Source: Lachnospiraceae bacterium (lineage in GTDB: Bacteria > Bacillota > Clostridia > Lachnospirales > Lachnospiraceae). Taken from it: a stretch of DNA of 41,750 nucleotides. The notes below the pieces were generated by a model. It worked only from the letters and a program-made list of their open reading frames with translations. It was not told the origin of the DNA and searched no databases. The DNA lies in contig JAGAOO010000066.1 of NCBI GenBank assembly GCA_017623675.1, forward strand, positions 1 to 41,750. Direction: 5' to 3'. Each line of letters begins with the position of its first letter. The first letter of the stretch is position 1. The translations under genes were made by a program, and so were the position numbers. Shown here in pieces: positions 1 through 41,750 of this stretch.

Positions 1-231
1 GCGGAGCGGTACTTTGCTTCCCATATAAATTATGGGTTGGTTTTTACCAGAGTAGATGTTCGGCGGATGAATATATATGCTTGAATGCAGACTCTAAAAG
101 TACGTCGGTACTTGGATTGCGTCTTTTGCAATCCTATGTACCGTTACGTACTGATTGAAGTGCAAACGTGTCTGCATCAAGTATATATATTCGAAGCCGA
201 ACGCTAGTCAGTACACTAAACCTTAATTTAC
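1..231 (+). repeat. structured repeat element, copy 1 (candidate ncRNA or mobile palindromic repeat)
   Basis: About 231 bp that recurs as the reverse complement at 41214-41443 (about 15 differences by eye) and, more divergently, from 41539. It begins with GCGGAGC at base 1, so more may lie outside the window. Next come a small hairpin (CCCATA/TATGGG, loop TAAAT, about 21-37) and a second one (TGGT/ACCA). A long imperfect palindrome follows at about 59-202, with arms starting GTTCGGC and ending GCCGAAC. Inside, an AU-rich stem (TGCAGAC pairs with GTCTGCA) leads to a junction with an apical stem (AGTACGT/ACGTACT, CGGTAC/GTACCG, GGATTGC/GCAATCC) and a side hairpin with a GCAA loop. No oligo-T terminator follows; asd starts 27 bp downstream. 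I do not recognise the family. The structure is seen in sequence; RNA function is inferred. Confidence 0.8.
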
Positions 232-1536: not shown

Positions 1537-1596
1537 ATTTAGTGATACAACGATATGTATACTGTGGGAAAATTAGGAAAGGAGGTTTCGGTAGGT

Positions 1597-1962
1597 ATGG
1601 TAGATAATGAAATGCTGGAAGCAATTAGAATGGTGCTATTTCCAATAGAAGAACGCCTAGAAGTATTAGAAAGCAATATGAATCGTCGTTTTGATGAAGT
1701 GGAACAGAATCTGAACAGCCGGATAGACGAAGTAGAGCGGAATCTAAATAGTCGGATAGACGAGGTAGAACACCGTGCTCTGTCGAGAATCGATTACGTT
1801 TACGAGCATCTGAAAGACTCAATTACAGAAACTGAGAATGCGCTGGGGATATGGATTAAGGATATAGACCTGGAGATTCAACGGGAAATTGTACCAAAGT
1901 TGTATGAAATCTATCAATTTTATTTGCAATCGGATTATAAAACTGCCTTGGGTGGTTTATAG
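1597..1962 (+). CDS. coiled-coil hypothetical protein with 11-residue repeats
   Basis: I do not recognise the family. The ORF opens at ATG 1555, but AAAGGAGG at 1578-1585 points to ATG 1597, giving 121 residues. The middle of the protein is an 11-residue (33-bp) tandem repeat with core SRIDEVE (RRFDEVEQNLN, SRIDEVERNLN, SRIDEVEHRAL, SRIDYVYEHLK). Such hendecads usually form long right-handed coiled coils. The flanking parts are also charged and helical, and there is no signal peptide or membrane segment. It has its own promoter and stands alone between asd and the YjbR/MGMT gene. A structural or scaffolding role is possible, but no function can be assigned. Confidence 0.7.
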   Translation: MVDNEMLEAIRMVLFPIEERLEVLESNMNRRFDEVEQNLNSRIDEVERNLNSRIDEVEHRALSRIDYVYEHLKDSITETENALGIWIKDIDLEIQREIVPKLYEIYQFYLQSDYKTALGGL

Positions 1963-28704: not shown

Positions 28705-30900
28705 ATGGCTGGACAAGGAAAAAAACGTAAAGTAAAAAAACGATTTCTAAACAGAATGAAGATAAAGCTGACAGTGATGTGTGGAATTGTACTGGTCGGC
28801 TTTATTGTCGTTTTATGCAGAATGGTATATGTGGAACAGATAAAAGGAGATGAATATGAAAAACGGGTATTATCTCAGCAACGATATGACAGTATATCAA
28901 TCCCGTATCGTCGGGGAGATATTCTGGATAGAAACGGAACAGAGCTGGCAACCAGTACCAAGGTGTACAATTTAATTATTGAGCCAAAGATTATTTTGGC
29001 AGAAGGTGACAAAGAGGTAACCTTGGAGAATGGAGAAACATCCACAAAAAAGATTTTGGTTATCAATGCATTGAAAACCTATTTTGGTTTAACAGATGAA
29101 GAAATCAATGCTGCTTTGGCAGATGAGGATTCCTTATACAAGATTATGGCGAAGAAGTTGTCCTATGATACTGTTACACCATTTAATGAGTATTTGGAAA
29201 CAAAGGAAGGATCACAGCTTGTAGGTATTTGGCTGGAAGATGAATATCAAAGATATTATCCGTATGGCACTTTAGCCTGTCAGACATTGGGTTTTACTGC
29301 CAGCGGCAATGTAGGAAATTCAGGTATTGAATTATATTACAATGAGGAATTAAACGGTGTAGAGGGACGACAGTATGGGTATTTAACCACTGACCAAACG
29401 CTGCAGAGAACAATTCGTGAGCCGATAAACGGGAATACAGTTGTTACGACTCTGGACACGAATATTCAACTAATTGTTGAAAAGCAGATTGCAGAATTCA
29501 TGACAGAAACCGGAGCGAAGAATGTATCCGTTCTTGCAATGGATCCGAATAATGGCGATATTCTTGCAATTGCCAACTCCTATACCTTTGATTGCAATCA
29601 ACCATATAACGAAGAAAGTATTTATTATCAGTTTGCAAATCCTGACGGAAGTTATTCTTTTGAACGGGAAGTGATACCTGAGGTTTCCACAGAACCTGTT
29701 GAGGAAGGCACGGAAGAAGGAGAAAGCACAGAAGAAGGAGAAAGCACAGAAGCTTCAACCCCGGAACCTGTGAGAACTGTTATTACGGCAGCCGGTGGAG
29801 CAGAATTGGTTGCACAAATGACGGAAGAAGAACGATTGAATGCATTTAATAAAGTATGGCGGAATTATGTAATTAGTGATACCTTCGAACCTGGATCCAC
29901 CTTTAAACCTTTTACGGTGGCAGCCGGCTTAGAGGAAGATATTATACATGATGGTGATACGTTCTACTGCGAAGGACATTATACGGTTGTGGAAGGACAA
30001 CGTGCAGTCAATTGTCATTTATTAAGTGGACATGGAACAGTAACCGTAGAGCAGGCGATTATGCAGTCTTGTAACTCTGCATTGATGCAGATTGCACAGA
30101 AAGAGGGTCCTGCCGTGTTTTATAAGTATCAAAAGGACTTTGGCTTTGGAAGTAAAACTTATGTGGATTTACCTGGAGAGGCAAATACAGCTGCGTTAGT
30201 ATATACAGAAGAAGGATTAAATCCGATGGAATTAGCAACATCCTCCTTTGGACAGGGACAAAATGTATCAATGATTCAGCTTTGCACAGGTTTTTGCTCC
30301 TTGGTAAATGGCGGTAATTACTATGAACCTCATGTAATGAAACAAATTGTAAATGAAAATGGTGATGTGATTACAAATTATGAGCCTACCGTTCTGAGAA
30401 GAACCATCTCAGAGGAAACCTCCAATCTGTTAAAGGAGTATATGTATCAGACGGTTGAAGCAGGTACGGGTAAACGTGTACGTATTGAAGGTTATACGAT
30501 TGGTGGTAAAACCGGTACAGCAGAAAAACAGCCAAGAGGAAATGAGAAATATGTTATTTCGTTTATTGGTTTTGCTCCGGTAGAAAAACCACAAATTGTA
30601 TTGTTTGTAACGGTAGATGAACCAAATGTTGCAGATCAGTCTCATAGTGGTGCTTCGTCTTTAATTGCACATGATATTTTTGAAGAAGTACTTCCGTATA
30701 TGAATGTGTTTCAAAGTAATACCAGTGTGGATGATGGAAGCCCAATTGTGGATGAAACAGCCACACCGGTACAGGGCGATGTGCAGCCGGAAGGAAATAC
30801 ATCAACCGAAGGAGAAACATCAGCCGAAGGAGAAACATCAACCGAAGGGGAAGCATCAACCGAGGGAGAAGCTTCCACAGAAGGTGGTAACAACGAATAA
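28705..30900 (+). CDS. class B penicillin-binding protein (FtsI/PBP2B-like)
   Basis: 731 residues, started at ATG 28705 behind AGGAG. Septal DD-transpeptidase with FtsW as partner. An N-terminal membrane anchor (about 22-45) and dimerisation domain precede the transpeptidase domain. The catalytic motifs are STFK (Ser398, Lys401), SCN (455-457) and KTGT (Lys602-Gly604). There is no PASTA domain. Two acidic Glu/Gly/Ser/Thr repeat tracts are odd: one inserted before the transpeptidase domain (about 334-350) and one at the C-terminus (about 696-727, six-residue units such as EGETST). The tract DNA is tandem 18-bp repeats, so length may vary. The next gene encodes a second class B PBP. Confidence 0.94.
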   Translation: MAGQGKKRKVKKRFLNRMKIKLTVMCGIVLVGFIVVLCRMVYVEQIKGDEYEKRVLSQQRYDSISIPYRRGDILDRNGTELATSTKVYNLIIEPKIILAEGDKEVTLENGETSTKKILVINALKTYFGLTDEEINAALADEDSLYKIMAKKLSYDTVTPFNEYLETKEGSQLVGIWLEDEYQRYYPYGTLACQTLGFTASGNVGNSGIELYYNEELNGVEGRQYGYLTTDQTLQRTIREPINGNTVVTTLDTNIQLIVEKQIAEFMTETGAKNVSVLAMDPNNGDILAIANSYTFDCNQPYNEESIYYQFANPDGSYSFEREVIPEVSTEPVEEGTEEGESTEEGESTEASTPEPVRTVITAAGGAELVAQMTEEERLNAFNKVWRNYVISDTFEPGSTFKPFTVAAGLEEDIIHDGDTFYCEGHYTVVEGQRAVNCHLLSGHGTVTVEQAIMQSCNSALMQIAQKEGPAVFYKYQKDFGFGSKTYVDLPGEANTAALVYTEEGLNPMELATSSFGQGQNVSMIQLCTGFCSLVNGGNYYEPHVMKQIVNENGDVITNYEPTVLRRTISEETSNLLKEYMYQTVEAGTGKRVRIEGYTIGGKTGTAEKQPRGNEKYVISFIGFAPVEKPQIVLFVTVDEPNVADQSHSGASSLIAHDIFEEVLPYMNVFQSNTSVDDGSPIVDETATPVQGDVQPEGNTSTEGETSAEGETSTEGEASTEGEASTEGGNNE
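30790..30885 (+). repeat. 18-bp tandem repeats in PBP gene 3' end
   Basis: Five or six imperfect 18-bp units encode EGET/AST-type hexapeptides at the C-terminus of the first PBP. A related 18-bp pair lies at about 29716-29755 in the same gene. Confidence 0.8.
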
Positions 30901-40350: not shown

Positions 40351-41122
40351 CCAGATATTTTCTCATATTCTTTAAGGCACCTTTTTCCAAACGGCTGACT
40401 TGTGCTTGAGAAATGGCAATTTCTTCTGCCACCTCTGTCTGAGTTTTGCCCTCAAAAAAACGAAGCTTAATTATGTTGTATTCCCGCTCAGACAGTCGGT
40501 GCATGGCTTCTTTTAATGACAAGTCTTCCACCCAGGCGTCTTCTGTACTTTTCTTATCCTTAACCTGATCCATCAGATAGAGGTTATCCCCGCCTTCCTG
40601 ATAGACAGGCTCATATAAGGATAACGGGCTGGCTATGGCGTCCAGAGCCATAACAACAGCGTCTTTATCCATATCAATCTCCTTAGCAATTTCCTCCATA
40701 GTAGGTTCTTTGTCATGAGTACGCAGATACTGTTCCTTGGCATAAATGGCTTTATAAGCAATGTCTCGAAGGGAACGGGAAACTCGTATGGAATTGTTAT
40801 CTCGAAGATAACGTCTGCATTCTCCTATGATCATAGGGACAGCGTAGGTAGAAAACTTGACATTTAGAGAGCGGTCAAAGTTATCGATGGCTTTCATTAA
40901 ACCAATACAGCCAATTTGGAATAAGTCATCTGCCTGTTCTGCGCTATTGGTAAATCTCTGAATGACACTTAGTACGAGACGGAGATTGCCCTCGATTAGT
41001 AATTCTCTGGCATGGGTATCTCCTTCTTCAATTTGGCGAAATAACTGGTTCTTTTCTTCGTTATTCAGTAAAGGAAGCTTGGATGTATTCATTCCACATA
41101 AATCCACTTTGTTCAATGCCAT
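40340..41122 (-). CDS. sigG: RNA polymerase sigma factor SigG (forespore, late)
   Basis: 260 residues, started at ATG 41122 behind AGGAGG. The N-terminus (NKVDLCGMNTSKLPLL) matches SigG of B. subtilis closely, which separates it from SigF. Region 2 is LRLVLSVIQRF, then DDLFQIGCIGLMKAIDNFD and FSTYAVPMIIGECRRYLRDNN. Region 4 ends QAQVSRLEKGALKNMRK. It directs late forespore genes after engulfment. The gene converges on sigE instead of following it co-oriented, and its upstream region contains repeat copy 2. Confidence 0.96.
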   Translation of the reverse strand: MALNKVDLCGMNTSKLPLLNNEEKNQLFRQIEEGDTHARELLIEGNLRLVLSVIQRFTNSAEQADDLFQIGCIGLMKAIDNFDRSLNVKFSTYAVPMIIGECRRYLRDNNSIRVSRSLRDIAYKAIYAKEQYLRTHDKEPTMEEIAKEIDMDKDAVVMALDAIASPLSLYEPVYQEGGDNLYLMDQVKDKKSTEDAWVEDLSLKEAMHRLSEREYNIIKLRFFEGKTQTEVAEEIAISQAQVSRLEKGALKNMRKYLAEG

Positions 41123-41178
41123 AAGATTTCCTCCTGAAAATGACTTGTAATATAAGGATTCACGAAAAGAGTTGGATT

Positions 41179-41183
41179 TATAC
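41179..41183 (-). promoter_or_regulatory. possible SigF/SigG-type -35 element for sigG
   Basis: GTATA on the minus strand, 57 bp before the sigG start codon. It fits the GHATR-type -35 of forespore sigma factors, but no good -10 (CATnnTA or GGnnAnAnT) follows at the right distance, so this is weak. Confidence 0.25.
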
Positions 41184-41213
41184 GAAGGAAAAAATGGAAA
41201 TAAATAATTGAAA

Positions 41214-41443
41214 TAAATTAAGGTTTATCTTACTGACTAGTGTTCGGCTTCGAATATATATACTTGATGCAGACCCGCTTCCGCTTCGGTCAGTACGTAG
41301 CGGTACATAGGATTGCAAAATACGCAATCCAAGTACCGACGTACTTTTAGAGTCTGCATTCAAGCATATATATTCATCCGCCGAACATCTACTCTGGTAA
41401 AAACCAACCCATAATTTATATGGGAAACAGAGTACTGCTCCGC
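41214..41443 (-). repeat. structured repeat element, copy 2 (inverted relative to copy 1)
   Basis: The reverse complement matches 1-231 from GCGGAGC through the AAACCTTAATTTA end, with about 15 differences. Seven of these differences fall in the ~25 bp covering the side hairpin and its approach: GATT becomes GACC while TGTC becomes GGTC, GT/AC becomes GC/GC, and the loop GCAA becomes GGAA. The outer and apical stems are unchanged. It lies between sigG and the window's right part, oriented toward sigG, with its 3' end 91 bp before the sigG start codon. Confidence 0.85.
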
Positions 41444-41538
41444 ACAAGTTATCAATGCCTACGAAAACAATGATACTTTAATGTTGACAATGCGTATAAT
41501 TACGTAAACAATAGCGTTTGTTGTAACGTTTAATCCCC
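41444..41538. other. spacer between divergent repeat copies 2 and 3
   Basis: 95 bp, AT-rich. It contains TTGACA (41484-41489) and TATAAT (41495-41500), which are too close together to form one promoter; AACAAT lies 17 bp after TTGACA and is a poor -10. No gene is visible here. Confidence 0.5.
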
Positions 41539-41750
41539 GCGGAGCCATACTACTTTCCCCAATATAAATTATGGTTCTTTTCCATTCCTACAGCAGCGGT
41601 TTTGAGGGTATATGTTTCCGCAACGACCTTAGAAGCACGTCGGTACTTAGGCTGTGCTTTGAGAACAAAAACAGTTATTCTTTATCAAGCACAGCCTTAC
41701 GTACCGCTACGTGCTGGCTGGAGCGCAAGCGTGTCGTGCGGGAATATATA
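41539..41750 (+). repeat. structured repeat element, copy 3 (divergent, cut by window end)
   Basis: Starts with the same GCGGAGC and the conserved AATATAAATTATGG hairpin. Beyond that only the key blocks are conserved: ACGTCGGTACTTAGG, then TACGTACCGCTACGTGCTGG and AGCGCAAGCGTGTC. The stems differ from copies 1 and 2 but still pair: AGCACGT/ACGTGCT replaces AGTACGT/ACGTACT, and a 10-bp GGCTGTGCTT/AAGCACAGCC replaces the 7-bp apical stem. The terminal loop is longer. The window ends inside the right arm of the outer stem (GGGAATATATA). Confidence 0.8.

What the first reader, a model, noticed from the sequence alone, without database searches (positions are those of the whole stretch)
59..202. 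Repeat element folds as a three-way junction with a pairing-preserving side hairpin
The copies share a long AU-rich stem, an apical stem with a constant CGGTAC/GTACCG block and an asymmetric pyrimidine-T bulge, and a side hairpin with a GNRA loop (GCAA, GGAA, GCAA). Between copies the stems change on both sides: AGTACGT/ACGTACT against AGCACGT/ACGTGCT; the whole apical stem is replaced; GT/AC against GC/GC closes the GNRA loop. Paired changes like these are the signature of selection on RNA or single-stranded DNA structure. I know no named RNA family with this shape.
Basis: partly seen in the sequence, partly recalled or inferred. Interest (0 to 1): 0.8.

Follow-up and report, generated by a model that had tools for sequence, protein, structure and literature searches.

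The report
Folded DNA repeat of Lachnospiraceae
The window carries copies of an unnamed DNA repeat that folds into a branched hairpin; repeats of the same shape but different letters were found in 141 of 397 genomes sampled from what appears to be the bacterial family Lachnospiraceae, mostly between genes, and the changes lean towards selection on folded DNA rather than on an RNA gene, though its function is unknown.

Summary
Window 26-230 is one arm of a composite repeat. Each arm has a ~97-nt core: a three-way junction with a long stem, an apical stem with a pyrimidine-T bulge, and a GNRA-type side hairpin. In five genomes of the genus, 28 of 28 neighbouring arm pairs face the same way (- then +) and join unlike arms. 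A covariance model found the core in 141 of 397 family genomes; in a class-wide draw of 391, all 11 carriers belong to that family. Covariation is strong: 33 of 35 pairs with double changes, 338 cells against 98 shuffled. G-T pairs are rarer than in 15 tRNAs if one conserved loop-closing pair is set aside, and A-C mismatches occur. The core shows no orientation bias relative to genes (23 versus 30). Both weigh against an RNA gene, without excluding it. Inverted unlike pairs, copy number (5-132) and intergenic placement resemble REP/REPIN repeats, but the element is larger, and Y1 transposases do not track it (15/30 carriers, 23/30 non-carriers). Rfam and the literature searches named nothing. 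The partner enzyme is unknown.

The parts
1..22 (+). right half of the central palindrome of a composite; the contig starts inside it
   Evidence: GCGGAGCGGTACTTTGCTTCCC; same half-palindrome in complete composites
26..230 (+). arm type A: one complete repeat unit (inner TAAATTATGG end to outer CCTTAATTTA end)
83..179 (+). 97-nt three-way-junction core (models R1/R2)
217..230 (-). outer terminal repeat TAAATTAAGGTTTA (read on the - strand)
41213..41227 (+). left terminal repeat of the second composite
41214..41419 (-). arm type A; the match to 1-230 (93%) runs 41214-41443
41265..41361 (-). three-way-junction core of that arm
41420..41563 (.). central palindrome with a 95-base loop between the two arms
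41564..41750 (+). arm type B, cut off by the contig end (inner terminal repeat at 41564-41578)
41618..41742 (+). three-way-junction core of arm B (long apical loop)
   Evidence: nhmmer 41625-41735; ends extrapolated to the 97-position core

Best explanation
This is a REP/REPIN-like, non-coding dispersed DNA repeat, so far seen only in one family. Its unit is a large imperfect palindrome that, when single-stranded or extruded, folds into a three-way junction with fixed unpaired bases. Shown here: the shape, the covariation, the family range in the samples drawn, mostly intergenic placement between co-directional or convergent genes, inverted pairs of unlike arms in one genus, retention at orthologous sites in another genus, and presence or absence at one site. 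Inferred: an unidentified enzyme recognises the folded hairpin and copies it to new sites; pairs of identical arms would be long perfect palindromes and are lost, which leaves unlike pairs; old copies persist because the fold is useful or harmless where it lies. Two known transposase classes were tested as partner and neither fits.
For: Covariation: 25 of 35 pairs with double changes in 27 genus arms, 132 cells against 44 shuffled; 33 of 35 and 338 against 98 in 36 matches from other genera (alignment fitted to the model). Unpaired bases near-invariant in 73 arms (columns of A4): T16, T36, T90, G120, A123 73/73; A91, T101, A117, G126 72/73. Range: 141/397 family genomes; in 391 Clostridia-class genomes 11 carriers, all of that family. 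Placement: of 65 elements with both flanks resolved, 53 lie between co-directional ORFs, 10 convergent, 2 divergent (one element per locus from 84 loci, 2 near-identical, 11 without a flank and 6 far ones dropped; no baseline of intergenic classes computed). Pairs: 28/28 in (-)(+) order, arm-to-arm identity 0.35-0.75, first arm's best match elsewhere 0.60-1.00; 7 of the 28 have an arm trimmed by a contig end, which lowers identity. Gain or loss: beside the 3' end of dnaB G000 and G005 carry an element; G001, G003, G006 and G007 show none by eye (gene identity). Copy numbers 5-132 in ten carriers, tandem arrays. Weak G-T excess and no orientation bias.
Against: No partner enzyme was found: Y1_Tnp occurs in 15/30 element-rich and 23/30 element-negative genomes; no core lies in the 30 Y1 loci returned, of which only 13 come from element-rich genomes. 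No target duplication or excision product was shown. In G213/G579, 9 of 11 examined sites are shared, so movement there is slow or over. In G213 the outer stems look unrelated between sites (8 copies by eye), odd for copies of one transposon. Closeness to the preceding stop codon is only a tendency: median 65 nt to the stop, 110 to the next start, p 0.08; for cores in gene orientation 83 and 83. G-T still exceeds A-C, 2:1 in the core without the loop-closing pair and about 5:1 with it.
Confidence: 0.5

Rival explanations
1. A structured RNA: either an intercistronic mRNA element (stability, processing, termination) or a multicopy small RNA.
For: GNRA side loop in 73/73 arms and near-invariant unpaired bases; very stable fold; only 2 divergent placements of 65; retention at 9 of 11 examined orthologous sites; G-T exceeds A-C: isolated mismatches 70:33 in the outer stems of 63 arms, 69:44, p 0.02, in an overlapping set of 82, and a G-T pair closing the apical loop in 94 of 98 cores.
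Against: No orientation bias (23:30, p 0.41); G-T fraction lower than in the tRNA control when the loop-closing pair is left out, and A-C mismatches tolerated, although the control is small and its stems have no mismatches of any kind; no Rfam match at cut-off.
Confidence: 0.3
2. A MITE of an ordinary DDE insertion sequence: the TAAATTATGG ends are transposase sites and the arms are passengers.
For: Terminal repeats TAAATTATGGTTTA in the window's genus and TAAACTGTAGCTTA in G044; element present or absent beside dnaB.
Against: IS630-type DDE_3 found in 1 of 18 carriers, and its locus holds no core; no such ends seen by eye in the G213 copies, although the core is kept; passengers need no covarying core. 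Other DDE families were not searched.
Confidence: 0.12
3. No selection: imperfect palindromes repaired by template switching, which changes both arms at once.
For: Double changes far outnumber one-sided ones across genera.
Against: Correction would erase the conserved bulges and internal loops (inference); between orthologues one-sided changes (15 still paired, 22 broken) outnumber double ones (8), as stepwise compensation predicts; stems are more alike (91.5%) than flanks (85.0%).
Confidence: 0.06

Closest known systems
REP / BIME / REPIN repeats (PMC3733652: passages; PMC3116915 and PMC8266576: abstracts)
   Same: dispersed non-coding palindromes; inverted dimers, often unlike partners; mainly between co-directional or convergent genes; clusters; a bulged hairpin matters for recognition of E. 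coli REP
   Different: 20-40 bp against a ~97-nt core plus a long outer stem; three-way junction with GNRA side hairpin; no RAYT association found; PMC3733652 gives CGTC repeats in five phyla without Firmicutes, and one look-up found neither 'Firmicutes' nor 'Clostridi' in its main text
Bacterial MITEs (recalled; PMC10969869 seen only in a listing)
   Same: short inverted terminal repeats, non-coding, multicopy
   Different: core structure conserved across genera whose ends and stems differ; no parent transposase found in the two classes tested
Integron attC sites (recalled)
   Same: single-strand fold with unpaired bases matters more than letters
   Different: no cassette organisation noticed in the loci read; integrase link not tested; different conserved bases

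Membership tests
REP/REPIN | 20-40 bp palindrome | tested here: not met
   core 97 positions; trimmed arms 200-241 nt
REP/REPIN | unpaired GTAG or CGTC tag at the foot | tested here: not met
   foot columns of the core vary; the CGTC-like stretch lies inside a paired stem and varies to CGCC
REP/REPIN | Y1/RAYT transposase gene associated with the repeats | tested here: not met
   15/30 element-rich, 23/30 negative genomes with PF01797; 0 cores in 30 Y1 loci, 13 of them from element-rich genomes
REP/REPIN | intergenic, mainly between co-directional or convergent genes | tested here: met
   53 co-directional, 10 convergent and 2 divergent of 65; ORFs of 90 aa or more stood in for genes, no baseline
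REP/REPIN | inverted dimers | tested here: met
   28/28 in the window's genus; other genera also show direct tandem copies
REP/REPIN | close to the 3' end of the upstream ORF | tested here: inconclusive
   median 65 nt to the stop, 110 to the next start, p 0.08
MITE | terminal inverted repeats | tested here: inconclusive
   present in the window's genus and G044, not seen by eye in G213
MITE | target-site duplication | tested here: inconclusive
   TA at both ends is part of the end sequence; element-free dnaB sites too diverged to place the junction; serA side not found in G000
Any of 4227 Rfam families | score at or above the gathering cut-off | tested here: not met
   window at gathering: 0; 41100-41750 and 12 loci in evalue mode: only matches below cut-off
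Integron attC | recognition by IntI and cassette organisation | not tested
   recalled features only

The most novel reading that the evidence does not exclude
A categorically new class of structure-coded DNA element: a three-way-junction DNA hairpin, maintained across Lachnospiraceae by base-pair covariation, recognised and spread by an enzyme outside the HUH (REP) transposases, and possibly used by the host between genes.
Probability: 0.3. Interest if true: 0.85.

Novelty: new variant of a known kind. Interest (0 to 1): 0.7.

Why it matters
It would be a large, structure-defined repeat family in a major gut family of bacteria, without a match in Rfam 15 in the scans made, whose letters change while its fold stays. 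It probably also breaks assemblies: both ends of this window, and many contig ends of its genome, are copies. Finding what reads the fold would either extend REP-like systems to a new kind of enzyme or reveal a host function between genes.

Tried and rejected
RNA gene: weighed against orientation and G-T/A-C counts; kept as a rival. RAYT/Y1 partner: rejected as a general partner. IS630-type partner: not found in 17 of 18 carriers. Phage or plasmid origin: no match by blastn in phages and plasmids and none for one exact pattern in IMG/VR, a narrow test. Autonomous copy: the ORF between two cores 1 kb apart in G213 (L364) is a polysaccharide-deacetylase-type protein (DUF2334); the longer spacers of G002/G003 and of L347 showed no transposase by eye. 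Empty site at asd: relative G001 shows no element there, but the serA side was not found in G000. R1 on 80 named asd loci gave only three weak matches (E 5e-4 to 4e-3), not used. Literature: searches listed no paper on this element by title or abstract start; opened were PMC3733652 and PMC2267715 (passages), PMC8266576 and PMC3116915 (abstract and outline). My note gives 17/30 versus 21/30 for Y1; one search recounted gives 15/30 versus 23/30. Thirteen of the 30 'negative' genomes (after G041) were taken as negative because one search did not list them as positive.

Full report
What was checked. The window is contig C81 of an 84-contig, 2.81-Mb genome. Both contig ends are copies: 1-230 and 41213-41750. 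The + strand of 1-240 folds at -97.2 kcal/mol as RNA against -54.5 for shuffles, the complement at -81.0 against -47.3; the ssDNA folds score z -11.0 and -11.3.

Anatomy. The seven complete copies measured in the same genome are composites of 497 to 616 bp: TAAATTATGGTTTA, an arm, CCATAATTTA, a central palindrome with a loop of 17 or 95 bases (one of the seven, L085, did not fit the loop pattern), TAAATTATGG, a second arm, TAAACCATAATTTA. Three arm types (A, B, C) have different stems and the same shape. Single-arm copies exist, for example after dnaB in G005 and before a GntR-type gene in G001. Of 28 arm pairs within 700 bp in five genomes of the genus, all 28 are in (-)(+) order and all 28 join unlike arms: identity 0.35-0.75, while the first arm's best match elsewhere is 0.60-1.00. 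Seven of the 28 have an arm trimmed by a contig end, the copies share descent, and short-read assembly could hide identical pairs.

Covariation. On 27 arms of the genus, 93.4% of cells pair and 25 of 35 pairs have double changes: 132 cells, 44 in shuffles, none of 500 as high; sliding the partner by 1-3 columns drops pairing to 29-43%. On 36 matches from other genera, 92.8% pair, with 338 double-changed cells against 98 shuffled; that alignment was fitted to the model and leans towards it. The number of further pair types was not above shuffles (324 of 500 as high) and modestly so (9 of 500). The shuffles do not keep relatedness. Near-invariant unpaired bases and a GNRA side loop hold in the 73 arms of A4; the second loop base is never T.

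Range. Model R1 matched 141 of 397 family genomes (stricter filters, ten candidates scored per genome, own genome included). Model R2 matched 11 of 391 genomes drawn from the class; all 11 belong to the family. From the order of the listing 16 family members were in the draw, so none of about 375 others matched. Six of eight genomes of the genus, own included, match by DNA. In ten carriers R2 gave 5 to 132 cores (at most 150 candidates scored). Tandem arrays with a 148-bp period occur.

DNA or RNA. In 98 cores there were 3006 Watson-Crick, 158 G-T, 32 A-C and 221 other cells; 94 of the G-T lie in one pair that closes the apical loop. Without it G-T is 2.1% of paired cells, with it 5.0%. Fifteen distinct tRNAs from the loci in hand gave 292, 21, 0 and 0, that is 6.7% G-T; 64:32 against 21:0 differs at p 0.0008. 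The control is small and its stems have no mismatches at all, so this is a lean, not a proof. Isolated mismatches in the outer stems give G-T:A-C 70:33 in 63 arms and 69:44 in an overlapping set of 82. Relative to co-directional neighbours the core is in the same orientation in 23 and opposite in 30 (p 0.41). Median distance is 65 nt to the preceding stop and 110 to the next start (p 0.08); for opposite cores 53.5 and 137.5, for same-orientation cores 83 and 83. ORFs of 90 aa or more stood in for genes.

History. In one genus, 9 of 11 examined sites of G213 are occupied at the orthologous place in G579 (11 of 15 G213 and 10 of 12 G579 copies fetched, counts). Between them stems are 91.5% identical, flanks 85.0%, unpaired positions of the stretch analysed 78.3%; 8 pairs changed on both sides and still pair, 15 changed on one side and still pair, 22 broke on one side, 1 on both, 32 fell in gaps. 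Five of the 8 are at one site (L369/L353). In the window's genus the 3' end of dnaB carries an element in G000 and G005 and, by eye, none in G001, G003, G006 and G007; G002 and G004 were not read on that side. In G005 dnaB and in the GHMP-kinase gene of G000 the element supplies the stop codon TAA.

Partner. PF01797 is present in 15 of 30 element-rich (ten scored cores each) and 23 of 30 element-negative genomes. No core lies in the 30 loci returned, 13 of them from element-rich genomes. PF13358 is in 1 of 18 carriers. No other enzyme was tested.

Comparison. REP repeats share placement mainly between co-directional and convergent genes and a preference in most families for unlike dimers; the passage read mentions that long hairpins cause replication stalling and instability (PMC3733652). 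They differ in size, tag, architecture and enzyme. I therefore call this REP-like in how it may work and not a member of that family.

Noticed in passing
L084:480-630, L094:446-600, L099:201-340, L109, L222: A second branched repeat (GAGCCATGC...GCATGGCTC with inner hairpins) sits between the terminal repeat and an arm, or beside the same terminal repeat; no Rfam match at cut-off.
   Followed up: partly
L087:470-570, L088:680-790, L107:1401-1510: In some arms the small side hairpin is replaced by a ~100-nt branched insert that keeps the hairpin's foot.
   Followed up: no
L271:1353-1893; L256:1501-1744; G116 contigs C41, C55, C59, C12: Head-to-tail arrays of cores with periods of about 148-211 bp.
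   Followed up: partly
window 1555-1962 and L090 (right of the element): Small ORFs that look like coiled coils (by eye; only sub-threshold Pfam matches for the window one) lie next to or near the element; may be coincidence.
   Followed up: no
window 30790-30879: 18-bp tandem repeats at the 3' end of a penicillin-binding-protein gene (28705-30900).
   Followed up: no
L083:371, L236:736: The element's TAA end serves as the stop codon of the preceding gene.
   Followed up: partly
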